Shown: positions 2,825 through 64,000 of the stretch, piece after piece
How the letters are laid out: every line of letters begins with the position of its first letter
Numbering within the stretch: position 1 is the stretch's first letter
DNA from: Acorus gramineus
Taxonomy: Eukaryota > Streptophyta > Magnoliopsida > Acorales > Acoraceae
Length of the DNA: 64,000 nt
Reading direction: 5' to 3'
NCBI GenBank assembly: GCA_030737835.1
Contig: CM060849.1
Location: 28,206,311-28,270,310 of the forward strand
Program-made: the position numbers and the translations under genes
Notes under the pieces: model-generated
What the model was told of the DNA's origin: nothing
Seen by the model: only the letters and a program-made list of their open reading frames with translations
The model's database searches: none

Positions 2825-3124
2825 CTCGGGTGATGTGGCAACCACAGCGCGGGCCAGGCCTAGGCGGAGGTAGACCACGGGGCCATGTTTGCGGGCGATG
2901 TCACGGAGGGCGCGGTGGGGGAGGCGGCCGAGCTGGTGGAGGTTGCCGATGATGGGGAGGCCGGGAGGAGATGGAGGTAGCGTCTGCTTCTTGGCTCCCC
3001 TGCTTCTTGTGGAGGTGATGAGGAGCATTAGCACCGCCGTGGCCAACCAGAGAAATGCAGCAGTCAAGTTGGTCGAAGAGAATTCTTTAAGGAATGCAAG
3101 GAGGTGATTCAATATGGTTGCCAT
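2825..3124 (-). pseudogene. Cytochrome P450 5' fragment (unit 1)
   Basis: On the minus strand this encodes the first 100 residues of the P450 found complete at 26404: [15 protein letters not shown], the hydrophobic anchor, the [12 protein letters not shown] hinge and on to VVATSPE. There the similarity stops abruptly and continues into unrelated sequence. The nucleotide match to 26105-26404 is essentially perfect by eye, with a constant offset of 23280 bases, so truncation followed or accompanied a recent duplication. The 5' leader up to about 3190 is also shared. No downstream exon exists on this side, so it cannot make a P450. It marks the left edge of unit 1. Confidence 0.9.
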
Positions 3125-3568
3125 TTTTCTCTGAAGAGCAAACTGTGTTTGTGTTAGAGAGTTCATAATTAAGAACAGAAAATTCAATTCCATTGATTGG
3201 GGTATCCAACTTCATAAGTACGAATGGATTGGGGTCACCCGCTTTATTCTATTGATTAATTAATCACTGAAACCATGTGTTTTGCACTGATTAACTGACA
3301 CCATGTGTTCTATACGTGTTTGGCAATCCCTGTCGGCCACCTAACTGGCAAGTCATATAGTATAAATGGGTTCTCTCTATCAATTACCACATGTTTTGCG
3401 CAGTAATGAAATAATGATAGAAATTAATTGAGTGACGCCTTTATTTAGCTGGGGATAAAACAAATCGGTGATGGAGATGCCTCACCATTTCTGACAAACT
3501 TGAAATTATTGATCAATGTTTCTGAACTATGTCATAATACCTTTTATAAAATGTATAGCAAGTCTCAG

Positions 3569-3797
3569 GGTGCGTTTGGTTGCGCGATTGCAAAACTGAT
3601 TCTGTAGGAATCTACGATTGCAAAATTGATTCTGCAGGAAGCTCACTTTCTCAGCTTTTTGAAATCGCAGCTTTTAGGCACTATTTGCGTGAAATCTGTG
3701 TGCAGGAAGCTGCTACAGTAAAACTGTTTGGTTGCACGATTGTAAACGTAGCTTCCTGCAATCGCAATCACAGCGCAATCGCGCAACCAAACGCACC
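3569..3797. mobile_element. MITE family M2 (GGTGCGTTTGG termini), unit 1 copy
   Basis: A 229-bp element with a perfect 23-bp terminal inverted repeat that starts GGTGCGTTTGGTTGCGCG and ends CGCGCAACCAAACGCACC. It is flanked by the 3-bp direct repeat CAG at 3566-3568 and 3798-3800. The equivalent place in unit 3 (about 59924) has a single CAG and no element, which confirms both boundaries. There is no coding capacity. The 3-bp duplication is compatible with PIF/Harbinger or CACTA relatives, but the ends match neither consensus well, so the superfamily is left open. Confidence 0.9.
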
Positions 3798-3800
3798 CAG

Positions 3801-5560
3801 TCTCGTATCTCCAAAATTAAATTACATAGGGCGGATATGGGGCCCTCCTTCGCAATGAAAACCTGACTTCATTAGGGGTGGAATATAACGGATCAGTCAC
3901 GATTAAACGTAAGTAGGATAAGAGATTGGATCTCGTCACCTTCAACTCCTACAAAGAAAAGGATAAAAGATAAGTTTGCACTAGAGAGTCTACACTTAGG
4001 CTCACTTTGAAGATATAATTAAAATTTAACTTGATTTTTTTCCCATCCGTCTTACAACCTTATATAAGCAAAGGAAGGAGACAAGTATCATAACTAGACA
4101 ACAAGCTCTAGATTGGCTTTCATTATTCCAATGACTTTAAATAAAAGGAAACTCATTCCAAAACTTTGAAAATAGATATTACAACTTATTAAATTTTGAC
4201 TACAACTTACATGACTTAGAAAATATAAAATAAAAATTAAAGAGAATGTTATGTTCCAATGCTTGAAACACAACTTAGAAAATATCATCTTTCAAGAGAA
4301 AGCCAATTACTCAATTAACACATGAGATAAATCAAAGCTGCTTTTAGAGAACCTTGGATGGGGAATTAATATTCATGGGCTTGTTGGACTAGGTGTTTGG
4401 TTGAAATTGTCAAACTATGAGTTGGTCATGTTGTGTATGTTTTGAGCTCTATTTTGCTCTATAAAATTGATCATATGATAGATGCATTTGGCTCATTTAT
4501 AGTTGAGTAGAATGCGTCTAACATTATTATTTTTTTAATTTTGGTGTTTTCTTTTTTGGTATTTTAGGTTTTCCTTTATGTATATATATAAATAGAGCAT
4601 TTGGCTCATGTAATACAAAGAATAATCTTTTCCTTTATTCTGACACAGAGAACGGTGCAGAATCACAATTCAACGAACTTTATCAAGCATTCAAAGAAAT
4701 TCACATATTTGGAGACTAGCCATATGAAACGGCTGAATATAATCATGTCCGACAAATCTGTCGTATATTCAAAAAATAAGTTCTGAATCTGAACAGTTTG
4801 GATTTCTCGTAGGAACAATATCAATTATCAACTATCAAATCTCTTCTTTTTTTCAAATTAAATATAAAAAGAAAAATAATTTTCATTACTAGTCGCACGG
4901 CCACACCCACATCATCTCGGGCTGAATCTCCTTCTGGTCCAATCATTGACTCGTCGGCCGGCTGCCACCATGTCGCCTCGGGTCTCCTCTGGTCCTCCCT
5001 TTCCAATCCGGCTGTCCCTCCTCCTTCTGCTTAGTTGACTGGTCTGTTATTTTGTTACATTAGTTTCTCATGTGTTCTGTGATTTTTTTTATAGTTCTTT
5101 AACATTAAATGGGAAGTGTAAAAGTGGTTTTGTTAATATGTTTCTTTAACATTAAATGCTTGACAAGTGACATCTACAGCACATTGGTCTGTCTGTAATA
5201 TGAAACTCTCTATAAACCTCACAAATCACATGCCTATTGAATATTGAAAATTGAAATTTTTTATAGATGTTTATTGAATGGCAGATTGACAATGACATTA
5301 TATTTTATACTTTTTATTTTAAATTGAATTCTAATTTTTTTATTGTATATAATAATTATTTTATTTGTTCGATATTTTAATGCTATACGGGAGAGTTTTC
5401 ATATTGATAAATGGTGTACTTTGTGTTTTTTATGATTTGATAAGACTAATGCGTATTTTAATATTATTAATATTTTCTAAATATTTTTAATGATGTAAAT
5501 TTTAAGTATAATATTTATTCAACAACACTGATGCGTCTTTTATATTTTGTAGAATTTAGA
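3801..5560. other. Unit spacer between P450 5' end and hAT relic
   Basis: This spacer is present in all three units (27087-28853 and 59927-61720) with few differences. It holds AT-rich DNA, a TATATATAAATAGAGC stretch near 4580, the phrase GCATTTGGCTCAT twice (about 4484 and 4597), and a GC-richer island at about 4890-5035 inside otherwise AT-rich sequence. The island has no convincing reading frame and could be the leader or terminal region of the hAT element that follows. No supported gene is seen. Confidence 0.45.
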
Positions 5561-7580
5561 ATGCCTATAGACAAAGGAAACATATGGGACCATTGTGAAA
5601 AAGATGGAACATGAAATAAAATTAAATGCAAAAATTGTGAAGAGCTACGGATGATTGAAATTTCATTTAGCAAGAAAAATTGGCATGGATATTAAAATAT
5701 GTAATGCGGTCCCATATTCTGTACAAACTTTTGCTAGATACTTAATTGATGAAGCATGAAAGAAAGAAAAAAATGTGGTCTGAAAATATTTCTTCTTCAA
5801 GTGAATCAGGTTCTCAAACGACAAACCTCATTGATTTATATGTGGAGCAAGACCATCAAACAAGAGGAGTATACAAAAGTATTGTTAGTACTCTTATTCA
5901 AAAGAAAAAAAGTAGCTGATTTGGCAATTAGAAGATTTTTTATTGGCAATAATATTGCGTTCAATGTTGCAAAGTCACCCGAGTTTATTAATGCTATTGG
6001 TGCAGTAGTAAATCATGGTCCTGGTTATAGGTCACCTAGCAGTGAAGCTATTAGAACCAAGTTGTTATGCGATTTGAAAGAAGAAGGTACATAATATGTA
6101 AATGTGATAAAATAACTCTTGGGTGGAAACTGGATGTACGATTATGCCTGATGGTTGGAAGGACCAGAGAAACAGAAATCATATTAATTTATTAGCGTCT
6201 TCAATAAAAAAAAACAATGTTTTCCTATGCTCGGAGACGAGCGAAGGAAAAGTGAAAGATGCAAAATACCATGCTCATTTTATTTTACACGGCATTGATG
6301 AACATGTGGGAAGAGAAAATGTAGTACAAATTATAACAGACAATGCTTCAAATTACATGGCTGCTGAATATATCATAGAAGCTCAAATATCTCATGTTTT
6401 TAAAACAAATTGCGCTGCACATTGTTTGGATTTGATTCTTGAAGACATTGATAGGCAAATTTTAAAGGTCAGAGACACAATACATAAGGCATGGATATAA
6501 AAATTTTATTTATAAATCTACTCATGTTTTAGATTGCGTGCGAAGTTTTACAGAGTGAAAGTAATTGAAGAGGTCATCAAACACCCTCCTTGCAACAAAT
6601 TTTTTGATGTTGAAATCCATAATTAACTTAGACCAATCATTGCGTTTTATGGTTGCATCAATGAGTGGTGTGCATTATCATAGACTTTACTGTGGATGGC
6701 AAAGAAGTTAGTTATATCATATATGATACTTTTTTTTGGGAGGATGGAAGAGAAATTATAGTTGTTATTGTGCCGCTTGTGAAAGTATTAAGAATGGTTG
6801 ATAGTGAAGGGGCGACACTTGGTTATGTATATGAAGCCATGGATCGAGCAAAGGAAGCAATATCCAAATATTATGATGGAATATTTGCTAAATATGAACC
6901 TTAATGGAACAAATTATGGGCAGATAACTTACATCATTCTATCCATGTGGTTGCAGCCCTCCTCAATCCTCATCTATATTATGATAAAATTGTAAAACAT
7001 GATGAAGAAACTGATAAGGGGATTTCAGAAGTACTTCAAAAGATGCTCACAACTCAAGTTGAAAAAGAGGCCTTTAGCATTCAAACGATGGATTACATAT
7101 ACATTGCATTTGAATCCAACATATTCTCATCGTTTAGGAAACTCACTATTCATTCTAGACATCCAAGTATGGTTTATTTCAAAACTTATTATTTCTTGTT
7201 CATTTTATATTTTTTTCCATATTACATAAGACATCTATTAATTCACTGTTTTATATTATGTGAAAAGGTCAATGGTGAAAATATATGATCGTAGTTGATA
7301 AATTTCAAGAAATTCAAATAATTGCATTAAGGTTATTAAGTCAGCCATGCAGCACATTAGCTTGTAAAAGAAATTGGAGTGCAACATATACAAAGAAACG
7401 AAATCGATTGGAGCAAAAATTACTCAATGATCTCGTGTTTGTGTGAATGAATTTTCACTTGAAAATACTCATATTCTGCAAACTGATACTTTGAAGCCCA
7501 TATATTTGGATCACATTAATGCTTTTTCAAGCTGAATAAGACAATTTGATCATTGAAGAGCAGGGAGAAGAAGAAGCAAA
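5561..7580 (+). mobile_element. hAT-superfamily transposase relic, unit 1 copy
   Basis: A degraded autonomous hAT DNA transposon. It shows, in order: a BED-type zinc finger start (MPIDKGNIWDHC then CKNC, with a stop between them); the core with GCTIMPDGWKDQRNR, IITDNASNYMAAE and TNCAAHCLDLIL at 6123-6500; a stretch MVDSEGATLGYVYEAMDRAKEAI at 6790-6900; WNKLWADN and AALLNPHLYYD at 6900-7000; and the dimerisation-type end NWSATYTKKRNRLEQ near 7370-7410. Many stops and frame changes make it inactive. Most of these defects are shared with 28854 and 61721, so it was dead before the tandem duplication. Terminal inverted repeats were not identified. Confidence 0.85.
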
Positions 7581-7974
7581 CAATTAGATGATGCATAACA
7601 TCATAATATTAAAGATGATTATGTTCTTTTTATGTTTTTATTATGATCTTATTTATTAAAATAAAAGTTTTGAACGTTAATGTTCATTACATTTAATATT
7701 AAATTTTATCTATTTGACACTGTATTAGGATGATAAAATATAGTTTGATGTTTTATGTTTACTCATGGTTTATATCATATTTATGTATCCCCATACATTT
7801 CCTGTATCCAACCCGTATGATTCACGAGCTGGAACACTTGCTGAACAATTGTAGTACACGAACTTTGTTACTATGGCAGAAGACAAAATGGGTGTGGATA
7901 TTGGAAACATTATGAAAAAATTATATCACTCCTTTCCAATCACACCAATATTCCAATCACCCCTCATCCCCGTG

Positions 7975-8641
7975 GTGATGTGGGTAGCCTTTGCTTTTTA
8001 GCTCCCCTTGTGGAGGTGATGAGGAGCATTAACACCAACGTGGCCAGCCAGAGAAGTGCAGAAGTGAAGTTGGTCGAAGAGAGTTGTTGAAGGAATGTAA
8101 TAACGCAACAAAAAATTAAATAAAGATTAAACAAGTGTTGAGATCCTTTAACAAACCCACAATTCTCAAAAGAGAAATAAAACTCAAAAATATATTAATC
8201 AAAGTTGAAAACCCTAAATTACAAACCTTCCTTTTATACTAATTAAAAACAAAGTTTGTTATAACTAATTCTACATGATTCTAAGAGATCCTCATATTTG
8301 ATAGAGATTAAATCAAAGTTGTTATGATACAGATATTTGAAATAAAAAAAAGTTACTAAAAATAACAAAAAAATGCCATTTTGAGGGCAAAAAAAATAGG
8401 AAAAATTGAATAATAAGCGCATGTTATGATGTAGCGATACTTTTTGAAGATCTCATTGATATCTAACTCCAGTAAAAATTTCAGGCGATTACAAATTTGG
8501 GGCACTTGTTTTTACTAGCTGATTTTTTTTGTAATTATTTGAAAATCTAAAAAGTGGACTCTTCCAGGTTCATCACTCCAAGAACGCGTCAGCCATCTGT
8601 TCTGCATCATGCAAGGAAGTGATTCCATATGGTTGTCATTT
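7975..8641 (-). pseudogene. Older P450 5' remnant, split by an insertion
   Basis: Minus-strand sequence at 8097-7975 matches the P450 N-terminal coding region (the stretch around [25 protein letters not shown] and the hinge) with many changes. The start-codon end (MATILNHLL equivalent) lies about 510 bp away at 8641-8612. The break falls inside the equivalent of GGAATG-CAAGG. This is a separate, older copy from the P450 at 2825, lying between the hAT relic and the OMT. The rest of the gene is absent. It shows that several rounds of P450 duplication preceded the present tandem units. Confidence 0.75.
8098..8611. mobile_element. Insertion inside the P450 remnant, possible solo LTR
   Basis: About 514 bp of AT-rich sequence interrupts the P450 5' remnant. 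On the minus strand it starts near TGATGCAGAACAG and ends near GCGTTATTACA, with a possible ATG target duplication and a TATA-like TAGTATAAAAGG. These features would fit a solo LTR in minus orientation, but no partner or priming site is visible. The identical insertion is at 31392-31905, so it predates the unit 1/unit 2 split. Confidence 0.4.
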
Positions 8642-9304
8642 TGAGCTCTATATCTTACTGTCTTTCTGATGCAGACATCATAGCCACACATTATATGGAC
8701 GGACGAGATTAGATAAATAAAAAAAGAAGAAGACATCTCGATCGATTGGAAGCACCGTGACTTCAAATGGCCATAACTTTTAAATCATAATCGATATTAT
8801 AATATGTCCATGCTGTTATAACTAAGGATGCAAACATGTCTAATTTAAATAAATATACATACTTGTCAAATGAAATGGATATATACTATAAAAAAAATTA
8901 CATACTCAAATAAATTGAATGCATCATTTCAACATGTTCCTTTCATTGAATATATATTCTATTGGACTTCAAGGATAAGTAGATTTTGTTCCCTGGTGTG
9001 ACAATAAAAAAGAGCTCCTTCAGCAACTTGTTATAGGAGCAAAAAATTTAAAAACATCATTTAAAATCTATATATATTATATTTTGAAAGACTTGTGGGA
9101 ATCATCCACCAAACTTCATGTGTCTGACTGCGAACTACCATTCCAGGTGATCCAATAACAAAAAACGTGCGGTTTAAGAGTTTAGTGTTGTGAATACCAA
9201 TCTAATTAGTTTAAGAGTTTCACTACAGCTAATCGACAATCAAAGATACTTTGAATTCCTTGTGATGCAATTGTACCCAATAAAATAAAATAAATCACTA
9301 GCAC
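8642..9304. other. Upstream region of OMT copy 1
   Basis: AT-rich DNA with no supported gene. It is shared almost unchanged with 31936-32605. It may hold distal promoter sequence for the OMT, but no motif is strong enough to list. Confidence 0.4.
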
Positions 9305-9476
9305 GTATTGATGCACGGGCATTTAAATTAAAATAAGCGAATTCAGCAAACACACGACTTCGTTTACAACGAGGCGGGTTAATCAACTCTATAAATAACT
9401 ATTTATTCTCTTTTTTAAATCCCACAAGTAATTTAAACAAACACAGACACACCAGAGACCAAAAGAGCTGGTAGAC
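9305..9476 (+). promoter_or_regulatory. Core promoter of OMT copy 1
   Basis: A good plant TATA box, TATAAATA, lies at 9390-9397, 80 bp before the ATG at 9477. The block before it (9305-9385) is conserved in the inverted OMT at the left edge and in OMT copy 2, so selection or recent copying has kept it. The implied leader is short, roughly 45-55 nt, if transcription starts about 30 bp after the box. Confidence 0.7.
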
Positions 9477-10827
9477 ATGGAGCTCCCCACGTTAGACAGA
9501 GTTGATGAAGAATTGCATGCCCAGGGCCTCATTTGGAACCACATTTTCCAGTTCATAACCTCCATGTCCCTCAAATCCGCGGTCGAACTCCGCATCCCCG
9601 ACATCCTCCACGCCCACGGACAGCCCATGTCCCTCTCCGACCTCGCCGCAAAACTCGACATCCATCCAGAAAAGGCCGACTCCCTCCGCCGCCTCTTGCG
9701 CGTCCTCGTCTTCTCTGGATGCTTCGCAATCGAAACCAACAATAATAATGGCGATGGAAAAGGGGAGGAGGAGTCGTATCTCCTGACCCCCTCTTCGCGC
9801 CTCCTCGTGAGGGACAAAGACACGGGGACCTCGCCGTACCTGCTTGCGATGCTTGACTCGGTCCTGCTCACCCCCTGGCAGAGCCTCGGCGTCTGGTTCC
9901 ACACGGACGTGCGGACGCCCATACTAAAGGCGCACGAGATGGAGCTCTGGGGGCTGACCGGCAAGTCGGAAGGGCTCAACCGCATGTTCAACGAGGCGAT
10001 GGCATGCGATTCCAGGCTCGTGTCGAAGTGGCTCGTCCAGAAGCAACGTCAGGCCTTTGTGGGTCTCAAGTCCCTCGTCGACGTTGGCGGTGGAACCGGA
10101 GGGCTGACGCTGACAATCGCGGAGGCTTTCCCGTGGATCAAGTGCACCGTGTTTGACCTCCCCCACGTTGTAGCCGATGCGCCGGAGGGGACACTGGTGA
10201 ACTTCGATGGGGGGAACATGTTTCGAGTACATCCCACCATCCGATGCCGTCATTTTCAAGGTGAACCCACTTAATGAATTATAATATAAAATTCATATGA
10301 AACAATCATGAAAAAAAACTAAACTTTTTTAAAGAAAAATTATTATTATTTATGAGTCTTATCTGTCATTTTAGTCATAAAAATTAGTTTTGTTAACTTT
10401 TAACACTATATTCAAAATAGAAATTTAATATAAAACTAACATATCCATTTGAAAATGATTATTTCACCAAAGCTGAATCAATTTGACAACTGATCCTTGA
10501 GTATGTTGTTGGATCGTGCAGTTGATAATGCATGATTGGAGCGACGAGGAGTGTGTGAAGATATTGAAACAGTGCAAGAAAGCGATCCCCACTAAAGAGG
10601 AGGGAGGGAAAGTAATGATTCTCGACATGGTGGTGAACTCGAAGATACACGATCACAAGGCCACCGAGACACAATTCTTCTTCGACATGCTGATGATGGT
10701 GTTAACCGGAGGAAGGGAGCGGGAGGAGCGCGAGTGGGAGAAGATGTTTATGGAGGCGGGGTTCCATGGTGGTTACAAGGCGACGCATGGGTCTGGCGTG
10801 CTTTCGCTCATCGAGGTTTACCCATGA
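9477..10827 (+). CDS. Class II O-methyltransferase, copy 1 (two exons)
   Basis: A SAM-dependent small-molecule O-methyltransferase of the plant COMT superfamily, closest in style to resveratrol/orcinol-type OMTs; the substrate cannot be told from sequence. Exon 1 is 9477-10260, the intron 10261-10520/1 (GTGAAC to GTGCAG) and exon 2 10522-10827. Family features are the N-terminal dimerisation region (residues 12-40), PWQSLGVWFH (133-142), SAM motif VDVGGGTGG (201-209), catalytic His in IMHDWSDEEC (about 265) and the C-terminal IEVYP. The expected length is 362, normal for the family. One extra T in ATGTTTCG (about 10220) shifts the last dozen codons of exon 1; copy 2 lacks it. Because the change is one base in a short run, sequencing error is as likely as a true mutation. 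Exon GC content is far above the flanks. Confidence 0.9.
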
Positions 10828-10852
10828 ATCGGTTGTTTCCGTTATTTACTTT

Positions 10853-11712
10853 CTCGGATGCAAGTGTTAGCCAATGTTAAGGTCCATAGGAAAGTATCGT
10901 ATTTCACCTATATGTATGTGTATGTTTGTGTGAGAGTGATGGTGTCCAGAGTAGTAGTCTTTGTACGACCTGTGTATATATCCAGGTAAAGTATCGCAGA
11001 GTTTGGCAATTATTTACAGATTGAATTCTAGTTGTGAGAATTTCTTGACAACACCAGTACGGTGCTCACATGTTGTGGTACCACAAAACAGAGGAGGTTT
11101 TTTTTTTTCTCTTTAATGCACTTATGCACCCAAAGAGAATCTAAAGACAATCTATGCATTTTGTCATGGAGTACGTCCTGCGTGTTCAACGAGTTCGGAT
11201 CCCGTGGTGAATCCGTCCATGGCGGCTGACACATGACAGTTATCTTTAAGCCTCTCAAGGGGTCGGTCGATTCAGACCTGACCCAATTGATTATCCAATT
11301 ATTTGAATTGAGTATTTTATGTTTTTATCGGGTTCGGATTTATCCACTAACAAGCTTAGGTCAGACCAGAAAATACTAAACTTGGAGAGGTCGAGTGACT
11401 TCTTAAGAGTTGAACTTGGCTTTTTTCTTTCTTCTATCGCCTTCATTTTTGTGAAAAAAGATAAAGAGTTTGAAAAAAGGAAGGGAGAGGAGAAGAAGAT
11501 GAGAAAAGTTTTGTTTTAGTGAAAAAAAGCACTGCACATTCAGGTTGTGGAGACCACATTTTTTTGTTTGGATTTTTTCATTCCTATTTTTTCATAAAGA
11601 GTTTGAATAAATAGAGTCCAGTGCATTATAGATATTTCCTCAAATGCAAGTGTTAATTAACCAATGTTAAGGTCCATATGGAAAATATTGTAGTGCATCT
11701 ATATGTATGTGC
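10853..11712 (+). repeat. Duplicated OMT 3' flank
   Basis: The 3' flank at about 10857-10930 (CAAGTGTTAGCCAATGTTAA, then GGTCCATAGGAAAGTAT, then ACCTATATGTATGTG) recurs diverged at about 11644-11712 (CAAGTGTTAATTAACCAATG, then GGTCCATATGGAAAATAT). The 700 bp between them contain no gene. A short leftover of a second OMT 3' end is the simplest reading. Unit 2 has lost the second copy through a deletion of roughly 735 bp. Confidence 0.6.
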
Positions 11713-11715
11713 GTG

Positions 11716-12204
11716 TGATGTAGCACGATCATGGACCGCTTCGATCGATATAGAGGACTACCAAATGGATGATTATGGTTGATTTGCAATTTTAATAATT
11801 TTTTAAGATTTCTTTATTTTTTTAATTTTTAGAATTTGAATTTAAATTTAAATTTGAATTTGAAATTTGAAATTTAAATTTGAATTTGGTTATGATTTAT
11901 TTGTGATTTAAGAGATTTAAAGATTTGTCGAGATCCTATTTATTAGGATGCTCTGTTCTATAAGTAGTTTTATAATAAAAAAATTAAGAATAAGATTTGG
12001 TCAATATAATTTTATATTTCTCTACTGTATTTCTGTAATTCTAAGACGATTATCAAATACGTAGATTTTCATCATTTCTGATATTCTTAGGAATCAACAG
12101 ACTTGTTGAAGTCCATCATCCTGGCATTTTTTTTGAAGAATCAATAACGGCGTTGGAGCCTATTGATCTGATCCAGAGAAGAGCGTGAACTCTACACTAT
12201 ATCA
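11716..12204 (+). mobile_element. Fossil copia-type LTR, family C
   Basis: A 489-bp LTR starting TGATGTAGCACGATC and ending TATATCA, directly followed by ATTGGTATCACAGCC. That sequence is a recognisable primer-binding site for initiator methionine tRNA, so this was a 5' LTR. It is related to the LTR block at 17532-18634. The body that belonged to it is not seen downstream, where sequence of a different copia family begins. It is an old, broken relic. Confidence 0.65.
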
Positions 12205-16611: not shown

Positions 16612-16659
16612 ATAACATATAAGAGTCTTATCATTTTAACAATCGATGACTCGTAAGAG

Positions 16660-17392: not shown

Positions 17393-17444
17393 CCTAAATC
17401 ACATGATTAATTAAGTATTGATTATTAGAATTTATTATTTTTTT

Positions 17445-18741: not shown

Positions 18742-18749
18742 CTTAGGGT

Positions 18750-50950: not shown

Positions 50951-53486
50951 ACATCTATTATGCATCTGGATCATCCAAGTATATAGTGTGCCCTCACCGT
51001 TTCTTTTGATTAACCCTCCCCACTCTACATAAAACCAAAGTTTTTTTTTACTCCTTTTTCATTTACCGTCAACTCCCCTTCTATCCATATCTCACGTACA
51101 GTCATGAAAGCACGGATCCCACTCCTCAGCGTCCCCATCTAGACGCCCATCTAGAAAAAAATAAATTTTTGAATTTTTTTTTTTTTTTTGTATCTCAACT
51201 GTTCCTGATATCAATCATCATCTTTAAAAAAATCAATAATTTTTTACTTTTTGTTCTATTAAATGTCCCACAATCAAGAATTTACGATATGTAATCCTCT
51301 CTTCTCCTTCATCAACACTTCGAAAGTATATAATTTTTTTCTTTTATCTTATTGTCATTGTTACTAATTAATTTATTTAAAGTTTAAAATATGTGTGTAA
51401 ATATCTAAATAATCAAATCATTCAACATTTTTATAATATGAAACATCGTCGATGCCAAATTTAAAGGTATGCATTGCTTATTAGATTTATCTTTTAACAT
51501 TTTTTTTTTGAATTATCAATATGAAATATGATATATTGTTTTAAAATATGATAATTATTTTTTATAATTATTCAGTGATACGTTTTATATTAATGTTTTT
51601 GTTTCATTTTATACATATTTTCAATATATGCTATTGAAATTAAAAATATATAATGATATAACTTTAGAAAATATTTATATAAGTCACATTATCCCCCCCC
51701 CCCCCCCCTCCCCATAAAAATCATGTCTCCGCCATTGCCTATGTCCTACTTTTTTAGACAAAAACATTCAACGATTAAGAAGCTAAAAAAACATTGTCTT
51801 TTAAAAACTGCACGATTTTAAGAATTTGAGAGTTTCAATCACACATCCAAACGCATCCTTAGGGTCCATTTGTTTTGATGTAAAAGGTGAAGACTCTATT
51901 TTTCAGGAAAAGTAGTTACACAGAGAAGTTTTGAAAAGATAGAAAAAAATGGTTACAGAAAAGTATTTCTTTAACCGCTTTCAAATCTCGATTTTGGCAT
52001 CCGCCCTGAGGAGTTCGTACGCTGTTTTTCGATGATTAAGAACTCTATATTTTATAAAAGCATCTCAAAAGTTTATGTATCTTTTTTTTCCATGAATATT
52101 ATAAATTTAAATATTTTAAATCATTTTTTTAATATTTAAAAAATGTGAAAATACATTTCATTGAATTAGATGATATTTTCTAAAATTTAAAATTATTATT
52201 TACAATTTAATAATAAATTTTTATAATATAAATTAGATATTATAAATTTTGAAAATTATTTCCTATGATATTATAATATGCCCTTATAATAAATTTTAAT
52301 ATAAATTCAAAATTATATGAACCCATCATCTATTAGGTTTGATAATAAAATGCAAAACCTTAAAAATATCTAGATTTAATTACATTTTAACAATTTTTTT
52401 TAATTACTATAAATATCCTAACTTGAATGAGAGAGATTTTAGGATATATATATATATGGAAAAATATATAAAATGATTTATATCTCATTAATATTGATAT
52501 CCCATAAATAGGACTTTTATAACTAAAAAAAAAATTTCATGAATTTTTTTTAATATTACAAAATATGTAACTTGAATATTGTTTGCTTAAGAATAGTCTT
52601 TTAACTAAAAATCAAAATTCAAAAATTTAGAAAAAATGTCCAATGTAAATTTAACCAATCAAATTTATCTCGGAATAACCCAAAGTAACTACAGGAAATC
52701 TAAAGATCTCATATATGCTCTAGTTTGATCCCACTTTGAAATTTAAATTCAAATTTTAAATTTAATTTTGAAATTCGGATTTACAATAGTACTTGAACTT
52801 TTTTTTATTTTAGGCGTTTTCCATGAGTAAGGTAAAATAGTGTAGGTATCCTTATTCTCAATAAATATAATAATGCAAAAACAATTTTTGTACTAAAATT
52901 TATAATGATTTCGATTTGTTTATGGTCATTATATTTTTTTTATATTCATATTTTGACATTAATTCATATATATGGAAAAATAAGATTTTATAAATTTTAT
53001 AGAACCAAACACTAGAAAACAATTTCATGTGAACATTTTACGGGAAAACAAATGACGAAAATCATTTTCTGTAAAATAATTTCATTACAACCAAACGCAA
53101 GAAATTGTTTTGATTTTATTGGAAAACTTTGTGGTTTTTTTATTTTTTAGTCTCTATAAACTATATGATTTAGTAATTAATCATTCATTTCTTCATATTT
53201 CGGTTTAAGTCTACAGATTTAAAGAGTATGTTTCTTATTAATCCTTAGGAGGGATCTATCCTTAAATTTTTTGGTTGTCTTTTTAGTCCTTGAATGAGAC
53301 TATAAAGAACATATCTTTAAAATCTAGAAACTTAAACTGAAATATGAATAAGTGAGAGATCGATCATTAAATCATATAATCCGTGAAAACTTAAAAATAA
53401 AAACCCAAACTTTTGTCACGTGAAAGGAAATCCCTGTGAAATCAATCGTACCCTTAGATGAAAATTTAAGTTTCCTTAGACATTAC
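50951..53486 (-). other. Remaining P450-2 intron
   Basis: Matches 22950-25481 of the complete P450's intron, including the GGGTCCATTTG...CCAAACGC element (here about 51860-53098) and a longer C-run near 51694-51710. The match continues to CTTAGACATTAC at 53475-53486, a few bases from the splice donor, where the second copia element begins. Confidence 0.75.
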
Positions 53487-56400
53487 TGTTAAATGTATAT
53501 ATATGCTAGGGTTAAGGGTAGATTAGTCTTTTCCTTGTTTCCCTTTTGTACTATAAGTATTGGCTACAAACCCTAATAATACAATTGATTCATTTTCATA
53601 TTCTAACATGGTATCAGAGCTTGAATCCAATTTTTTTTTATCGTCGACGTCCCGTCGCCCCGCGCCGCCGTTGCGCCACCGTCGTGCTGCCGCGCGCCGC
53701 CGCTGCGCCGCCATCGTGCCGCCGCTGCACCGCCCCGCGCCGCCGCTGCACCGCCCCTCGCAGCCGCTGCGCCACCCTGCGCCGCCGCTGCGCCGCCCTC
53801 TCGCGCCGCCTCGCGCAGCCCTGCCGCGGCTGTGCCACCCTGCCGCACCGCCTCGCACTGCTGCGCCACCCTGCCGCGCCGTCCACCGCCACCCTGCCCT
53901 GCCCGCGCCTCGTCCGCGCCGTGCCCGCGCCCCGTCCGCGCCGTGCTGGCGCCCCGTCGCGCCGTGCCCGCACACACGCGCACCGTCCGCGTCTGCCTGC
54001 GCGTCGTCTCGGAATCGCGTGATCCGCGCGGATCCGCATTGATCAGCCCGGATTTCCTGGGATCCTGTCCCGGATTCGGTCCCGGACAACATCCCGGATC
54101 TCCCGGGAATTTGTCCCGAGATCCCGTGCCTCGCGCCCGCGCGCGTCCGGCCCAGCTCCAGCTCCAGCTGCCCGACCCGACCCGGCCCCAGCGCCCGACC
54201 TGACCCGGCTTCAGCGCCCGACCCGACCCGGCTCCAGCGCCCGACCCGACCCGGCACCAGCTGCCCGACCCGGATCCGCGACCCGACCCGGATCCGCGAC
54301 CCGTTTACCGCCCCGTCATCGCCTTTTTCGGTATTTTCTTTATTCGGCCGCTACGGGTTCATTCGGACTCCAAATATAGTCATATTGGTACTCATTTTGC
54401 TCCATTTTTCGTTCTGCACGCATCTGTGACTATATTTCCATCATCCGAGGCATATATTTTTTCTCTGTTATTCTCTTTTTGCCTATTATGGCTACGGATA
54501 ACACTCAGATCATCGATGTTAAGTTTGATGGTAACAATTATGATGTCTGGTCTATTAGTCTTGAACTTCAGCTTGATTATCGTCGCCTATTGGGTCATGT
54601 TACTGGCACTAATCTAGCTCCTGTACTTGAACTATCTCCACCGGGTTCTGATGAGACAACCATCAAGGCCAGAGCTGAGGCATATACTAAGGCTTTGTTG
54701 ACATGGAAGGAGGCCGATTCTCGGGTGAAAGCTTATATTGCTTCTTCGGTTATTCCAAATATCCGTAAACATTTGAAGCCGTTATTACAGCCAAGGAATA
54801 TTGGGACTTTCTGAAGAATTTCTATACGCAGACCGATGGTGCTCAGGAATTCTATCTACATCAGGCCATTTCTACTTCTTATCAAGGGGAGCTGTCTATT
54901 CGTGATTTTTATTCTCTTTTATCTGATTACTGGGATCAACTCGCACCTATGGATCCTCAGATGGAGGGTATTTTTCTGACACGCTATCGTGAGTACCGTA
55001 ATCGTCAACGATTGTACCAATTCTTGATGCGTCTTCGTCCTGAGTTCGAGGCTATTCGTGCACAGATTCTTCATCGTTCTCCCAAACCGTCTCTTGATAC
55101 GGTTCTTTTTGAGTTAGTTGCTGAGGAGACGCGTCTTCGCACTGTTGTCACTCCGCCTATCGTTGATCACAGTTCTGTCAATGTTGCACATCGTCAAGAC
55201 AATCGCTACACTCGGGTCACTTGCTATTATTGCCATAAAATTGGACACGTGCAATCTGAATGTCGTAAGCGTGCTCGTGATGGTGCTCCTCTTGTTTATG
55301 TACCTCGCACTTCAGCTCCTGGAGCGCTTCCTCCAGCACCTCGTCCGCTAGATCCTGCAGCATCACGTGCACTAGCGCCTCGGGCGCAAGCACCTCGGGC
55401 ACCTCCTACAGTTCCTCCACGTCGCTATCAGCCTCGACCTGCAGCTGCCGTTGCTTCTGATTTTCTTACTGATCCGCCGGCATATTCTTCCTCTCAGATC
55501 ACTGAGAGCCTTGCGCAGCTCCACCTTCAACAACAACAACTTCAAGATATGCTTCGCTCAGTGACTGGTAGTGACTCATCTGCTCCCTTTTCTGCTTCTA
55601 CTGCGGCGACAGGTAACCTCACCTCCTCATGGATTCTTGACTCTGGGGCTTCCCATCATATGACTTCTCAGGCATCCTTTATTCGTTGTCCTACTCGCAT
55701 GTTTCCCACTCCTGTTATTCGTACGGCAGATGGGACTCCTCTGTCTGTGTCGAGTTCTGGTTCTCTTGCTGATCCTTCTCATCGATTTCAACTTCCTGAT
55801 GTTTTTCATGTTCCTGGTCTATCACTAAATTTGCTTTCTGTTGGTAAAATTGCGGATCATGATTGTCTCATTACTTTTGATTCTTCTACTTGTTCTGTAC
55901 AGGATCGTCGTACGGGGAAGCAGATTGGGACAGGCTCTAGACGCGGTGGGCTCTACTACATGGATCATCTTCATATTCCTTCGTCTTCTGCAGCTTCTGC
56001 TCGCTTGATTTCTTCTTCTCCTTCCTCCTTTGATGTATGGCACCGCCGTCTTGGCCATCTCTCTCCTCCAAGACTTCGTTATCTAATAAGTACCGGTGTT
56101 TTAGGTTCCTTTTCAAAAACTGAGCTTCAACCATGTGTGGGCTGCAAGTTGGCAAAACACTTGGCTCTTCCATTTCCTACTAGTAAACACATTTCTGCTT
56201 CTCCTTTTGATCTAGTTCACTCTGATGTTTGGGGTCCCTCCCCTATTCCTTCTAAAGGGGGTAACCGTTATTATGTTATTTTTATTGATGATTTTCTCGC
56301 TTTACCTGGATATATTTGATGCATAGTCGTTCTGAGTTGTTACCCATCTATAAATCTTTTGCTACAATGGTTGAAACTCAGTTTTCCAAACGCATCAAGG

Positions 56401-58928
56401 TGTTTCGCTCTGATTGTGGGGGGAATATTGTTCTCGTGCTTTTCGTGATTTTTTATCCTCCCAAGGCACTCTACCGCAGCTTTCCACTCCTTATGCTCAT
56501 CAGCAGAACGGGGTTGCTGAGCGCAAACACCGTCATATCCTCGAAACGACCCGGTCCTTACTCCTCTCTGCTTCTGTTCCTGTTCAGTTTTGGGGTGAGG
56601 CTGTTCTTACAAGTGTATCTCATCAATCGCACTCCTTCGTCTATCACTGCTGGCATCTCCCCCTTTCAGCGTCTTTATCATAGTCCTCCTGATTATTCTC
56701 GTCTTCGTGTTTTTGGATGCACGTGTTTTGTCCTACTTCCTCCTCTTGAGCGTACCAAATTGTCTCCTCGTTCCACTATGTGTGTTTTTCTTGGGTATAG
56801 TAATGAGATCAAAGGATATCGATGCTATGATCCTGTTGCTCGTCGTCTTCGGACATCTTGTCATGTCACATTCTTTGAGAGTCATCCATACTACGCTCTT
56901 CGCTCGCCTCCTGTTCCTCTTCCCCCATCCACGGTTGAGGAAGTCACATTTTTGGACTTTTCCATTCCTGATTTCTCATCCTCATCTTTTGCTCCTCAGT
57001 CATCTACTCCGTCTGTACCTGTCCACTCTTCCTCGTCAGTCCCATCTTCACCCTTGCCGTCTTCGGATGATTCACGTGGGACGGTTCTGTCTACTCCTAC
57101 ACCTGTTCCTGATGCTGCTTCGCCAGAAGACGATTCTGCTTCCGCACCAGTTGCTCCTCGTCGCAATCCGCCTCGCGCTCGTCGACCTCCTCAACGACTC
57201 AGCTTGGTTGCCTCTGATTCTTTTTCTCCTAGTTTTCAGTGTTTTCTTTCAGCTGTTTCCACTCACTGGGAGCCCCAATCATATCGTGAGGCTGTCGGCA
57301 TTCCAGAATGGGAAGGTGCTATGGCAGAGGAGCTTAGTGCATTACAACGCACTCATACGTGGAAAATTGTACCACTTCCTCCAGGGAAGACTCCTATCAG
57401 CTGTAAGTGGGTTTATAAGATCAAGACCAACTCTGATGGTTCGATTGAGCGTCACAAGGCTCGTTGGTTGCCCGTGGTTTCACTCAGCAGCATGGTATTG
57501 ATTATGATGAGACATTTGCTCCTGTAGCAAAGATGACAACTGTTCGTACTTTGATTTCTGTTGCTTCTGTTCGTCAATGGCCCATTTATCAGCTTGATGT
57601 CAAGAACGCTTTTCTTCATGGTGATTTATCAGAGGAGGTTTATATGACTCCTCCTCCGGGTCTTCCTCATTCATCTGGTCATGTATGCCATCTTCACCGC
57701 GCTCTCTATGGTCTCAAGCAGGCTCCTCGTGCTTGGTTCGCTCGATTCACTGATGCTATCTGTGCTGCTGGGTTTGTTCGAGTTCCTCTGATCCAGCTTT
57801 ATTTGTTCACACCTCTGGTCCTCATCGTACTATCCTGCTGCTTTATGTTGATGACATGATCATCACCGGCGATGATTCGTCTCATATACAGTCGGTCAAG
57901 CAACATCTTCAGCGTCAATTTGAGATGAAAGATCTTGGCAAACTTCGCTATTTTCTAGGCTTGGAAGTTGCTTCTGCTCCGCGTGGTTATCTTCTCTCAC
58001 AACGCAAGTATACTGCTGACTTGATCGACCGTGCCTGTCTAACTGATGATCGCATTTCTCCCACTCCTATTGAGCTTCATGCTAAGCTCCGGCCTGACGA
58101 TGGAGAACCACTCTCTGATGTTACTCGTTATAGACAGCTTGTTGGAAGCCTCGTCTATCTCACTGTCACTCGTCCTGACATTGCCTATGCTGTGCATATT
58201 GTCAGTCAGTTTGTCGCTGCCCCTCGTACTGTTCATTATGCCGCAGTTCTTCGGATTATACGCTATCTACGTGGCACTATATCTCGTGCTCTGCTGTTAC
58301 CGTCTTCTTCTACTCTTGAACTTCGCGCTTATACTGATGCTGATTGGGCAGGAGATGTCACAGATCGAAAATCCACAACTGGTATATGTGTCTTTCTTGG
58401 GGACTCTCTTATATCTTGGAAGGCCAAGAAACAAGACATTGTTTCTCGTTCGAGTGCTGAGGCCGAATATCGTGCTATGGCATCTGCTACTGCTGAGGTT
58501 GTTTGGCTTCGACGCCTCATTTCTGACATGGGCGTCATTCTATCTGCGTCTACTCCCCTATATTGTGACAACAAGAGCGCCATTCAGATTGCTAGCAATC
58601 CAGTATTTCATGAACGTACGAAGCACATCGAGATCGATTGTCACTTCGTCCGTCATCATTTTATTGCGGGCACTATATCACTCCCATATATTTCCTCTTC
58701 TCTTCAGTTATCAGACTTTTTCACAAAGTCTCATACACTTCAGCGGCATGATTTCTTGTTGAGCAAACTCTCGGTGTATGATCCACCATGAGTTTGAGGG
58801 GGGTGTTAAATGTATATATATGCTAGGGTTAAGGGTAGATTAGTCTTTTCCTTGTTTCCCTTTTGTACTATAAGTATTGGCTACAAACCCTAATAATACA
58901 ATTGATTCATTCTTTTCATATTCTAACA
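53487..58928 (+). mobile_element. Fossil Ty1/copia element, family A, young, with both LTRs
   Basis: An element of about 5.44 kb with very short LTRs: 53487-53608 (122 bp) and 58804-58928 (125 bp), TGTTAAATGTATATATATGC...TTCTAACA, differing by one 3-bp repeat by eye. The primer-binding site TGGTATCAGAGC is at 53609-53620 and the target duplication ATTAC at 53482-53486 and 58930-58934. All classic parts are recognisable in order: gag-like region from 54488, zinc knuckle CYYCHKIGHVQSEC, protease motif DSGASHHM, integrase-side WHRRLGHLS and HSDVWGPSP, reverse transcriptase VDDMIITGDD and RNase H AYTDADWAGD. The coding region is broken, with roughly four to six interruptions. Nearly identical LTRs indicate recent insertion. 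It landed at the exon 1/intron edge of P450-2. Confidence 0.95.
53640..54310 (+). other. C-rich leader of the family A copia element
   Basis: Between the primer-binding site and the gag-like region lies about 670 bp of extremely GC-rich, C-biased low-complexity sequence built from words such as GCCGCCGCTGCGCC, then CCCGACCCGACCCGG. It gives long but meaningless open frames on both strands. It is the most GC-rich DNA in the window and dense in CpG. Confidence 0.8.
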
Positions 58929-59474
58929 AATTACCACGAGGATTGCTTTCATGGCCACGAAAGAGGATCAGCTCTTCTTTTCTCAGCCACGAAAGAGAGT
59001 CGATCTTGTGCGCGCTCAACAGTTTCATTGTGCAGAACTTCTTGATGTTGCGCCAGTGGGACCCGTACTCGCAGAACGTGATGTCCCGGCTGCCGTAGCT
59101 TATGAACTCCCCGGCATCGGATGGGGGACGGCTCGCGAAGTTTGCGTCGTGGGTCTTAAGGAACTGGGATGCCGCCTCGGGTGATGTGGCGACCACAGCG
59201 CGGGCCAGGCCTAGGCGGAGGTAGACCACGGGGCCATGTTTGCGGGCGATGTCACGAAGGGCGCGGTGGGGGAGGCGGCCGAGCTGGTGGAGGTTGCCGA
59301 TGATGGGGAGGCCGGAGGAGATGGAGGTAGCGTCTGCTTCTTGGCTCCCCTGCTTCTTGTGGAGGTGATGAGGAGCATTAGCACCGCCGTGGCCAACCAG
59401 AGAAATGCAGCAGTCAAGTTGGTCGAAGAGAATTCTTTAAGGAATGCAAGGAGGTGATTCAATATGGTTGCCAT

Positions 59475-61720
59475 TTTTCTCTGAAGAGCAAACTGTGTTT
59501 GTGTTAGAGAGTTCATAATTAAGAACAGAAAATTCAATTCCATGAAAAAGAAATGATGTGTATCCAACTTCATCAGTACGAATGGATTGGGGTCCCCCAC
59601 GTTATTCTATTGATTAATTAATCACTGAAACCATGTGTTTTGCACTGATTAACTGACACCATGTGTTCTATACTTGTTTGTCAATCCCTGTCGGCCACCT
59701 AACTGGCAAGTCATACAGTATAAATGGGTTCTCTCTATCAATTACCACATGTTTTGCGCAGTAATGAAATAATGATAGAAATTAATTGAGTGACGCCTTT
59801 ATTTAGCCGGGGATAAAACAAATCGGTGATGGAGATGCCTCACCATTTCTGACAAACTTGAAATTATTGATCAATGTTTCTGAACTATGTCATAATACCT
59901 TTTATAAAATGTATAGCAAGTCTCAGTCTCGTATCTCCAAAATTAAATTACATAGGGCGGATATGGGCCCTCCTTCGCAATGAAAACCTGACTTCATTAA
60001 AGGTGGAATATAACGGATCAGTCACGATTAAACGTAAGTAGGATAAGAGAATAGATCTCGTCACCGTCAACTCCTACAAAGAAAAGGATAAATGATAAGT
60101 TTGCACTAGAGAGTCTACACTTAGACTCACTTTGAAGATATAATTAAAATTTAACTTGATTTTTTTCCCATCCGTCTTACAACCTTATATAAGCAAAGGA
60201 AGGAGACAAATATCATAACTAGACAACAAGCTCTAGATTGGTTTTGATTCTTCCAATGACTTTAAATAAAAGGAAACTCATTCCAAAACTTTGAAAATAG
60301 ATATTACAACTTATTAAATTTTGACTACAACTTACATGACTTAGAAAATATAAAATAAAAATTAAAGAGAATGTTATGTTCCAATGCTTGAAACACAACT
60401 TACAAAATATCATCTTTCAAGAGAAAGCCAATTACTCAATTAACACTAATGAGATAAATCAAAGCTGCTTTTAGAGAACCTTGGATGGGGAATTAATATT
60501 CATGGGCTTGTTGGACTAGGTGTTTGGTTGAAATTGTCAAACTATGAGTTGGTCATGTTGTGTATGTTTTGAGCTTTATTTTGCTCTATAAAATTGATCA
60601 TATGATAGATGCATTTGGCTCATTTATAGTTGAGTAGAATGCGTCTACATCAGAGATGATGTTAAAGAGTTATTATTATGACATTATTGTTTTTTTAATT
60701 TTTGTGTTTTCTTTTTTGGTATTTTAGATTTTTCTTTATGTATATATATAAATAGAGCATTTGGCTCATGTAATACAAAGAATAATCTTTTCCTTTATTC
60801 TGACATAGAGGACAGTGTAGAATCACAATTCAGCGAACTTTACCAAGCATTCAAAGAAATTCACATATTTGGAGACTAGCCATATGAAACGGCTGAATAT
60901 AATCATGTCTGACAAATCTGCTGTATATTCAAAAAATAAGTTCTGAATCTGAACAGTTTGGATTTCTCGTAGGAACAATATCAATTATCAACTATCAAAT
61001 CTCTTCCTTTTTCAAATTAAATATAAAAAGAAAAATAATTTTCATTACTAGTCGCACGGCCACACCCACATCATCTCGGGCTGAATCTCCTTCTGGTCCA
61101 ATCATTGACTCGTCGGCCGGCTGCCACCACGTCGCCTCGGGTCTCCTCTGGTCCTCCCTTTCCAATCCGGCTGTCCCTCCTCCTTCTGCTTAGGTGACTG
61201 GTCTGTTGTTTTGTTACATGAGTTTCTCATGTTTTCTGTTATTTTTTTTTATAGTTCTTTAACATTAAATGGGAAGTGTAAAAGTGGTTTTGTTAATATG
61301 TTTCTTTCACATTAAATACTTGACAAGTGACATCTACAGCACATTGGTCTGTCTGTAATATGAAGCTCTCTATAAACCTCACAAATCACATGCCTATTGA
61401 ATATTGAAAATTGAAATTTTCTATAGATGTTTATTGAATGGCAGATTGACAATGACATTATATTTTATACTTTTTATTTTAAATTGAATTCTAATTTTTT
61501 TTGTCGATATAATAATTATTTTATTTGTTCGATATTTTAATGCTATACGGGAGAGATTTCATATTGATAAATGGTGTACTTTGTGTTTTTTATGATTTGA
61601 TAAGACTAATGCGTATTTTAATATTATTAATATTTTCTAAATATTTTTAATGATGTAAATTTTAAGTATAATATTTATTCAACAACATTGATGCGTTTTT
61701 TATATTTTGTAGAATTTAGA
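59475..61720. other. Unit 3 upstream region and spacer
   Basis: Matches 26405-28853 of unit 2 except that the M2 MITE is absent: a single CAG at 59924-59926 marks the empty site. A small unit 3-specific insertion near 60647-60690 (ACATCAGAGATGATGTTAAA) includes a short inverted ACATCA/TGATGT. The GC-richer island is at about 61050-61195. No gene. Confidence 0.6.
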
Positions 61721-63575
61721 ATCCTTATAGACAAAGGAAACATATGGGACCATTGTGAAAAAGATGGAACATGAAATAAAATTAAATGCAAAAATTGTGA
61801 AGAGCTACGGATCATTGAAATTTCATTTAGCAAGAAAAATTGGCATGGATATTAAAATATGTAATGTGGTCCCATATTCTGTACAAACTTTTGCTAGATA
61901 CTTAATTGATGAAGCATGAAAGAAAGAAAAAAATGTGGTCTGAAAATATTTCTTCTTCAAGTGAATCAGGTTCTCAAACGACAAACCTCATTGATTTATA
62001 TGTGGAGCAAGACCATCAAACAAGAGGAGTATACAAAAGTATTGTTAGTACTCTTATTCAAAAGAAAAAAAAGCAGCTGATTTGGCAATTAGAAGATTTT
62101 TTATTGGCAATAATATTGCGTTCAATGTTGCAAAGTCACCCGAGTTTATTAATGCTATTGGTGCAGTAGTAAATCATGGTCCTGGTTATAGGTCACCTAG
62201 CAGTGAAGCTATTAGAACCAAGTTGTTATGCGATTTGAAAGAAGAAGGTACATAATATGTAAATGTGATAAAATAACTCTTGGGTGGAAACTGGATGTAC
62301 GATTATGCCTGATGGTTGGAAGGACCAGAGAAACAGAAATCATATTAATTTATTAGCGTCTTCAATAAAAAAAAACAATGTTTTCCTATGCTCGGAGACG
62401 AGCGAAGGAAAAGTGAAAGATGCAAAATACCATCCTAATTTTATTTTACACGGCATTGGTGAACATGTGGGAAGAGAAAATGTAATACAAATTATAACAG
62501 ACAATGCTTCAAATTACATGGCTGTTGAATATATCATAGAAGCTCAAATGTCTCATGTTTTTAAAACAAATTGCGCTGCACATTGTTTGGATTTGATTCT
62601 TGAAGACATTGATAGGCAAATTTTAAAGGTCAGAGACACAATACATAAGGCATGGATATAAAAATTTTATTTATAAATCTACTCATGTTTTAGATTGCAT
62701 GCGAAGTTTTACAGAGTGAAAGTAATTGAAGAGGTCATCAAACACCCTCCTTGCAACAAATTTTTTGATGTTGAAATCCATAATTAACTTAGACCAATCA
62801 TTGCGTTTTAGGGTTGCATCAATGAGTGGTGTGCATTATCATAGACCAAAACTGTGGATGGCAAAGAAGTTAGTTATATCATACAGGATACTTTTTTTTT
62901 AGAGGATGGAAGAGAAATTATAGTTGTTATTGTGCCGCTTGTGAAAGTATTAAGAATGGTTGATAGTGAAGGGGCGACACTTGGTTATGTATACGAAACC
63001 ATGGATCGAGCAAAGGAAGCAATATCCAAATATTATGATGGAATATTTTCTAAATATGAACCTTAATGGAACAAATGATGGGCAGATAACTTACATCATT
63101 CTATCCATGTGGTTGTAGCCCTCCTCAACCCTCATCTATATTATGATAAAATTGTAAAACATGATGAAGAAACTGATAAGGGGATTTCAGAAGTACTTCA
63201 AAAGATGCTCACAACTCAAGTTGAAAAAGAGGCCTTTAGCATTCAAACGATGGATTACATATACATTGCATTTGAATCAAACATATTCTCGTCGTTTAGG
63301 AAACTCACTATTCATTCTAGACATCCAAGTATGGTTTATTTCAAAACTTATTATTTCTTGTTCATTTTATATTTTTTTCCATATTACATAAGACATCTAT
63401 TAATTCACAGTTTTATATTATGTGAAAAGGTCAATGGTGGAAATCTATGATCGTAGTTGATAAATTTCAAAAAATTCAAATAATTGCATTAAGCTTGTAA
63501 AAAAAATTGGAGTGCAACATATACAAAGAAACGAAATCGATTGGAGCAAAAAATACTCAATGATCTCGTGTTTGT
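61721..63575 (+). mobile_element. hAT-superfamily transposase relic, unit 3 copy
   Basis: Third copy of the element at 5561. The N-terminal ATG is lost (ATCCTT), but one extra A around 62070 keeps a longer frame (MMKHERKKKMWSEN through SLLMLLVQ, 61906-62169) than in units 1 and 2. The core (62284-62661) carries private changes (HAHF to HPNF, GIDE to GIGE, VVQ to VIQ), and about 28 bp are missing before the dimerisation region near 63494. It is more diverged than the unit 1/unit 2 pair. Inactive. Confidence 0.85.
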
Positions 63576-64000
63576 GTGAATGAATTTTCACTTGAAAATA
63601 CTCATATTCTGCAAACTGATACTTTGAAGCCCATATATTTGGATCACATTAATGCTTTTTCAAGCTGAATAAGACAATTTGATCATTGAAGAGCAGGGAG
63701 AAGAAGAAGCAAACAATTAGATGATGCATAACATCATAATATTAAAGATGATTGTGTTTTTTTTTTATGTTTTTACTATGATCTTATTTATTAAAATAAA
63801 AGTTTTGAACGTAAATGTTCATTACATTTAATATTAAATTTTACCTATTTGACACTGTATTAGGATGATAAAATATAGTTTGATGTTTTATGTTTACTCA
63901 TGGTTTATATCATATTTATGTATCCCCATACATTTCCTGTATCCAACCCGTATGATTCACGAGCTGGAACACTTGCTGAACAATTGTAGTACACGAACTT
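63576..64000. other. Unit 3 region after the hAT relic, cut by the window end
   Basis: Matches 7450-7870 of unit 1. By analogy the split P450 remnant and a third OMT should follow just outside the window, about 1.5-2.6 kb further. Nothing coding is seen in the part present. Confidence 0.5.

What the first reader, a model, noticed from the sequence alone, without database searches (positions are those of the whole stretch)
2825..64000. Tandem triplication of a P450-OMT unit
The same ordered set of genes and repeats occurs at 2825-26100, 26100-59170 and from 59170 on. Offsets are constant over long stretches (23280, then 33071), and unit 1/unit 2 identity is very high by eye. Each unit pairs a CYP71-clan P450 with a divergent O-methyltransferase. 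Such pairs often act in one pathway, so this could be an expanding specialised-metabolism cluster; that part is inference.
Basis: partly seen in the sequence, partly recalled or inferred. Interest (0 to 1): 0.75.

Follow-up and report, generated by a model that had tools for sequence, protein, structure and literature searches.

The report
Decaying P450–methyltransferase tandem array in plant
A plant chromosome carries about four back-to-back copies of a segment with a cytochrome P450 gene and an O-methyltransferase gene; the repeat is real, but many copies are broken, so it looks like ordinary birth and death of plant chemistry genes rather than a freshly tripled working pathway.

Summary
The tandem repeat is real. 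A fourth, truncated unit follows outside the window, inside a larger P450/OMT array on contig C3 (about 28.10–28.32 Mb). Units 1 and 2 differ by 1.16% substitutions over 21,553 sites. The unit starts are as reported, but they fall inside P450 exon 1, and the offsets drift.

The pairing holds as layout, not as working genes. In the window 0 of 3 OMT copies and 1 of 3 main P450 copies are intact; none of the four units has both intact. Outside, OMT o1 and P450 A are both open, 3.6 kb apart. Exchange between copies made an open chimeric OMT, and a 7.8-kb OMT segment sits beside P450 A where its paralogue B has an empty site.

No third enzyme type appeared among the 51 frames scanned. A diverged OMT and P450 lie 28 kb apart on C6, so an old functional link is possible but unproven. 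An assembly artefact looks unlikely, but no reads were available. New member of a known kind: a birth-and-death tandem array.

The parts
2821..26100 (.). Tandem unit 1 as aligned; the boundary lies in P450 exon 1
   Evidence: self-BLAST; 1.16% substitutions to unit 2 over 21,553 sites
26101..59171 (.). Tandem unit 2, lengthened by two copia insertions
59172..64000 (.). Start of tandem unit 3 (continues to about 81005; unit 4 from 81006 to about 96122, window-relative)
25484..26404 (-). P450 'D' exon 1 (307 aa from the ATG of MATILN; two further ATGs lie upstream in the same frame); open
   Evidence: Pfam PF00067 E 5.2e-37 on frame 25466-26497
21951..22574 (-). P450 'D' exon 2; whole gene 514 aa, GT-AG intron of 2,909 bp; GAIDT, KEGFR, PERF and [10 protein letters not shown] readable in the translation (meaning of the motifs recalled)
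   Evidence: PF00067 E 5.6e-61 on frame 21954-22583
2822..3211 (-). P450 'C': first 132 aa of the query exon only, at the left edge of unit 1
   Evidence: tblastn
58966..59558 (-). P450 'E' exon 1 remnant: 1-bp frameshift between 59304 and 59313, internal deletion of about 385 bp
44400..44894 (-). P450 'E' exon 2 remnant (aa 46-210 of the query only)
9477..10260 (+). OMT 'o3' exon 1; one extra T (TTT run at 10221) shifts the frame, which stops before the HDW stretch of exon 2
   Evidence: PF08100 E 1.6e-23 and PF00891 E 4.2e-22
10522..10827 (+). OMT 'o3' exon 2 (out of frame with exon 1)
   Evidence: PF00891 E 8.5e-23
32778..33558 (+). OMT 'o4' exon 1; two 1-bp deletions (near 32845 and 33172), first stop after 26 aa
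33813..34118 (+). OMT 'o4' exon 2
621..1989 (-). OMT 'o2': more diverged inverted copy, broken (frame changes and stops)
53487..58928 (+). Ty1/copia element at the exon 1/intron junction of P450 'E'; 0 substitutions in 122 aligned LTR sites; candidate target duplication ATTAC (one extra A on the right side)
44983..50950 (+). Second LTR element (copia-like) in the P450 'E' intron; LTRs differ at 21 of 332 aligned sites
   Evidence: RVT_2 matches among the 51 frames, which does not say which frames matched
6111..6497 (+). DUF659 frame (hAT-type transposase, recalled); like frames at 29404-29790 and 62272-62658
   Evidence: Pfam PF04937 E 4.2e-34 (first copy only); frames
7931..8116 (-). Short P450 N-terminal relic; also at 31225-31410 and outside the window
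16672..16947 (-). P450 exon-2 relic; also at 39113-39388

Best explanation
This is a tandem gene array of a plant genome. It holds P450s of the plant single-intron type (CYP71 clan and CYP736-like by recalled sequence) and plant class-II-type O-methyltransferases. Repeated unequal crossing-over between neighbouring copies most likely multiplied a roughly 22-kb segment holding one P450 and one OMT into four units. Ectopic exchange between copies then made chimeric and transplanted pieces, while small indels, deletions and copia insertions broke many copies. What survives in the wider array are a few open P450 and OMT genes that probably still hydroxylate and O-methylate small, likely phenolic, defence compounds. 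Shown: the repeat, its divergence, gene models, lesions, the chimera and the empty site. Inferred: unequal crossing-over as the mechanism, enzyme activity, substrates, and any shared pathway.
For: Direct repeats. Substitution differences 1.16% (units 1/2), 2.30% (1/3), 2.67% (2/3) (the last two totals include some bins of ectopic match). OMT DNA matches at 90% identity or more all lie at C3:28.147-28.297 Mb, among 53 matches listed from 35 scored candidates. For the P450 exon-2 probe the 3 matches at 99-100% are on C3 and the next are at 85%, among 31 matches. Both lists are lower bounds by the tool's own note. Gene models with GT-AG introns and no internal stop in the array: P450 A, B, D; OMT o1, o5b, oL38, oL39 (all 10 models put to that check, three of them on C10 and C6, were open, and they had been chosen because they looked open). 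Lesions. Chimera o5b: the first 32 of 32 informative sites match oL39, then 104 of 107 match o1, 2 match oL39 and 1 neither. OMT segment of 7.8 kb ends 56 bp past the P450 A stop codon; paralogue B shows the empty site, without target duplication. dN/dS in pairs with dS above 0.15: OMT 0.24-0.43, P450 0.31-0.41 with F set aside (some OMT rows are broken copies).
Against: The older LTR element in unit 2 has LTRs 6.3% apart, yet units 1 and 2 differ by only 1.16%, and units 1 and 3 lack the element at that site. A simple duplicate-then-insert history on one clock does not fit; later conversion or a faster clock in the element must be assumed. Several lesions are single bases in short runs and could be assembly errors. 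In very close pairs dN/dS is not low: oL39/C10 OMT 0.66, o1/o5a exon 1 0.62, P450 D/F exon 2 1.17, each on few changes. No expression data.
Confidence: 0.85

Rival explanations
1. Working, expanding biosynthetic gene cluster: each unit adds a P450 and OMT that act in one pathway.
For: Repeated physical pairing; one neighbouring pair open in both genes (o1 and P450 A); a related open OMT and P450 28 kb apart on C6; purifying selection in the deeper comparisons; CYP736 enzymes act in specialised metabolism (PMC11742589, passages).
Against: None of the four units has both genes intact. Pfam on 51 of the 139 frames of 130 aa or more in the 200 kb gave 17 families and no third biosynthetic enzyme. 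The C10 P450 copies (6.94 and 11.18 Mb) have no near OMT in my searches; the nearest listed is at 12.66 Mb.
Confidence: 0.2
2. Assembly artefact: haplotypes joined in tandem or a falsely expanded repeat.
For: The assembly seems to hold redundant sequence elsewhere: near-equal matches on C55/C74 and C57/C69 and C52/C57. No read data.
Against: Four units, more than two haplotypes of a diploid, with graded divergence; private insertions, deletions and truncations; longest exact direct repeat 1,196 bp; one 32.4-Mb contig.
Confidence: 0.08
3. The duplications were carried by a transposon that captured the P450/OMT segment.
For: TE-rich surroundings; the 7.8-kb OMT segment has sharp ends beside P450 A, with an empty site at B.
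Against: No target-site duplication at the A insertion; the junction shows a short target loss and a few shared bases. The four units are head to tail, not dispersed. I ran no scan for transposon ends.
Confidence: 0.05

Closest known systems
Plant metabolic gene clusters (definition read in passages of PMC8418127, which cites Medema et al. 2015)
   Same: Two non-homologous enzyme types (P450, OMT) side by side; size within the 35 kb to several hundred kb that the review gives.
   Different: No shown common pathway, no third enzyme type found among the frames scanned, and no unit of the four with both genes intact.
CYP736 family of P450s (functions as listed in passages of PMC11742589: monoterpenes, cyanogenic glucosides, biphenyls, sesquiterpenes, DIBOA formation)
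   Same: Resemblance by recalled sequence pattern; one phase-0 intron; P450 motifs readable.
   Different: No reference CYP736 sequence was at hand, so membership was not measured. Best solved-structure matches are ferruginol and sugiol synthases.
Plant class-II-type small-molecule OMTs (isoflavanone 4'-OMT, PoOMT1)
   Same: Dimerisation and Methyltransf_2 domains; best solved-structure matches PoOMT1 E 5.3e-65 and isoflavanone 4'-OMT E 2.7e-55 for o3 exon 1.
   Different: Substrate unknown; the window copies are broken.

Membership tests
[quoted passage not shown]
   P450 and OMT on contig C3
Plant biosynthetic gene cluster | The genes act in a common pathway | not testable with these tools
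   Needs expression and enzyme assays
   0 of 4 units have both open; met only outside them at o1/P450 A
Cytochrome P450 (PF00067) | Pfam match and heme-binding motif | tested here: met
   [10 protein letters not shown] in the translation of D
CYP736 family | More than 40% identity to named CYP736 members (rule recalled) and placement in a tree | not tested
   No named reference sequence at hand; recalled resemblance only
Plant class-II-type OMT | Dimerisation plus Methyltransf_2 domains, SAM motif and HDW stretch | tested here: met
   Domains in the o3 frames; DVGGGTGG and HDW in open o1. The o3 frame ends before HDW
Tandem array by unequal crossing-over | Head-to-tail homologous units on one contig with graded divergence | tested here: met
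Tandem array by unequal crossing-over | Confirmed by spanning reads or depth | not testable with these tools
   No reads held

The most novel reading that the evidence does not exclude
The array is an enzyme workshop. An old P450-OMT partnership (also present, diverged, on C6) is repeatedly copied, and ectopic exchange inside the array makes new open enzyme genes such as the chimeric OMT o5b and the transplanted OMT beside P450 A, while many copies die.
Probability: 0.25. Interest if true: 0.5.

Novelty: new member of a known kind. Interest (0 to 1): 0.3.

Why it matters
It is a clear example of how plant specialised-metabolism loci grow and decay. It warns that high-identity tandem units seen by eye are not equal to extra working enzymes. 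If the open chimeric OMT and the o1/P450 A pair are expressed, the locus would allow a direct test of how recombination in such arrays makes new enzyme activities.

Tried and rejected
CYP736A with O-methyltransferase and biphenyl: no paper. CYP736 with biphenyl and hydroxylase: 7 papers listed, passages read in two (PMC9125221, whose passages do not tie CYP736 to biphenyl hydroxylation; PMC11742589). Six tandem-cluster terms together: no paper. CYP736A with O-methyltransferase and gene cluster: 3 papers listed, none opened. plantiSMASH terms: 6 listed, passages read in PMC8418127. No Rfam family at gathering score and no tRNA in the window. NCBIfam gave only weak matches far under their cut-offs. 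Simple transposon capture of the OMT segment was set aside for want of a target duplication. Structure prediction was not run because domains and motifs were already clear.

In the dN/dS run P450 F entered with exon 2 only (207 codons), because my start search failed there; F is left out of the ranges that I give and its D/F value is told under evidence against.
Full report
Observation. The window is C3:28206311-28270310 of a 398.6-Mb, 137-contig genome. Its P450 and OMT have plant enzymes as best relatives among solved structures. Self-BLAST confirms the three unit starts at 2821, 26101 and 59172. With flanks (200 kb in all), unit 3 extends to about 81005 and a fourth, truncated unit to about 96122 (positions outside 1-64000 are window-relative, contig position = 28206310 + p). 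Substitution differences are 1.16% for units 1/2 (21,553 sites), 2.30% for 1/3 (17,746 sites, one 222-site bin at 17.6% included) and 2.67% for 2/3 (17,613 sites, several ectopic bins included). For units 1/4 the total is 3.34%; 14 of its 17 scored bins lie at 1.0-3.6% and 3 at 16-18% are ectopic matches. The offset is not constant: unit 1 to 2 moves from 23280 to 22441 and then to 33072.

Phase of the unit. The P450 is on the minus strand and the OMT on the plus strand. Units also carry short P450 relics (N-terminal relics in all four), and units 1-3 a DUF659-like frame (Pfam run on the first copy only).

Gene state in the window. P450 D is open: 514 aa, one GT-AG intron of 2,909 bp. P450 C is an N-terminal fragment. 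P450 E has a 1-bp frameshift, an internal deletion of about 385 bp in exon 1, a copia element with identical LTRs (0 substitutions of 122) at the exon 1/intron junction, an older LTR element in the intron, and lacks the start of exon 2. OMT o3 has one extra T that stops the frame before the HDW stretch. OMT o4 has two 1-bp deletions. OMT o2, a more diverged inverted copy, changes frame and has stops. So 0 of 3 OMT copies and 1 of 3 main P450 copies are intact, short relics not counted. The 1-bp lesions could be assembly errors; the large ones could not easily be.

Outside the window. I read C3:28096311-28114310 and 28126311-28326310; the 12 kb between were not fetched. Open models are P450 A and B and OMT o1, o5b, oL38 and oL39. 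By my own grouping of the tblastn pieces there are 9 OMT loci, 4 open, and 10 main P450 loci, 3 open, plus short relics. Unit 3 has an OMT with a truncated exon 2 (o5a), an open one (o5b), and a P450 with a 1-bp deletion (F) across its right boundary. Unit 4 has OMT fragments only. Thus no unit of the four has both genes intact. The pair o1/P450 A, left of the units, does; the two lie tail to tail 3,584 bp apart.

Exchange between copies. OMT o5b matches oL39 at the first 32 of 32 informative sites and o1 at 104 of the following 107 (2 oL39-type, 1 neither), a clean chimera with an open frame. The 7.8-kb OMT segment near P450 A begins and ends sharply, 56 bp past the P450 A stop; its paralogue B shows the uninterrupted site, with no target duplication. 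I read this as a repair-type insertion of a unit-derived segment next to A; the direction is inferred.

Selection and age. In pairs with dS above 0.15, dN/dS is 0.24-0.43 for OMTs (broken copies among them) and 0.31-0.41 for P450s, F set aside. That fits a history of function; it does not show that any copy works now. Very close pairs give higher values on few changes (oL39/C10 OMT 0.66, o1/o5a 0.62, D/F exon 2 1.17). The older LTR element in unit 2 has 21 of 332 LTR differences. That exceeds the unit 1/2 divergence, although units 1 and 3 lack the insertion; I cannot explain this without conversion or a fast-evolving element.

Rest of the genome. OMT DNA matches at 90% identity or more are on C3 only (the tool scores only the best candidates). 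More distant relatives are on C10 (an OMT at 12.66 Mb close to oL39, dS 0.017; P450s at 6.94 and 11.18 Mb) and on C6 (an open OMT, 66.9% identical to o1, 28 kb from an open P450, 54.2% identical to D). The C6 neighbourhood is the best hint of an old partnership. I ran Pfam on 51 of the 139 frames of 130 aa or more in the 200 kb, leaving out by choice P450/OMT frames, frames that overlap others and some repeat-rich ones. It gave 17 families: mostly reverse transcriptase, integrase, gag and transposase domains, the plant mobile domain and an endonuclease/phosphatase domain, with YdgV, LRR_12 and DUF4283 as single weak matches. Exons shorter than 130 aa would be missed.

Comparison. A plant gene cluster is defined as two or more non-homologous neighbouring genes in one pathway (PMC8418127, passages). 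The first part is met, the second untested. CYP736 enzymes are known from several specialised pathways (PMC11742589, passages), but I did not measure membership. I recall that in rowan a CYP736A hydroxylates a biphenyl between two O-methylation steps; this comes from memory, and the passages I saw show only that CYP736 enzymes oxidise biphenyls.

Verdict. A real tandem array with decay and exchange, ordinary in kind, with an interesting open chimera just outside the window.

Noticed in passing
67467-68787 window-relative (C3:28273777-28275097), L023: Open chimeric OMT o5b: 5' part like oL39, 3' part like o1, with a sharp switch.
   Followed up: yes
-61790 to -53988 window-relative (L010, L011): 7.8-kb OMT segment ending 56 bp past the P450 A stop; P450 B shows the empty site; no target duplication.
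   Followed up: partly
44983-50950: LTRs of the older element differ by 6.3% although its host unit differs from unit 1 by only 1.16%; a timing paradox.
   Followed up: partly
104717-109817 window-relative (L027): An element similar to the one in P450 E (96.1% over 1.8 kb, 76.6% over another 1.3 kb) interrupts exon 1 of another P450 copy (H); LTRs differ at 5 of 126 sites.
   Followed up: partly
G000 C6:22080656 and C6:22096187: Two related P450 copies in opposite orientation with nearly equal scores; also an inverted pair at C6:11937530/11945906.
   Followed up: no
G000 C55/C74, C57/C69, C52/C57: Near-equal P450 or OMT matches on pairs of contigs suggest retained haplotigs.
   Followed up: no
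G000 C4:3676700-3763677: A dense group of P450 frames that match the family nearly end to end without an intron.
   Followed up: no
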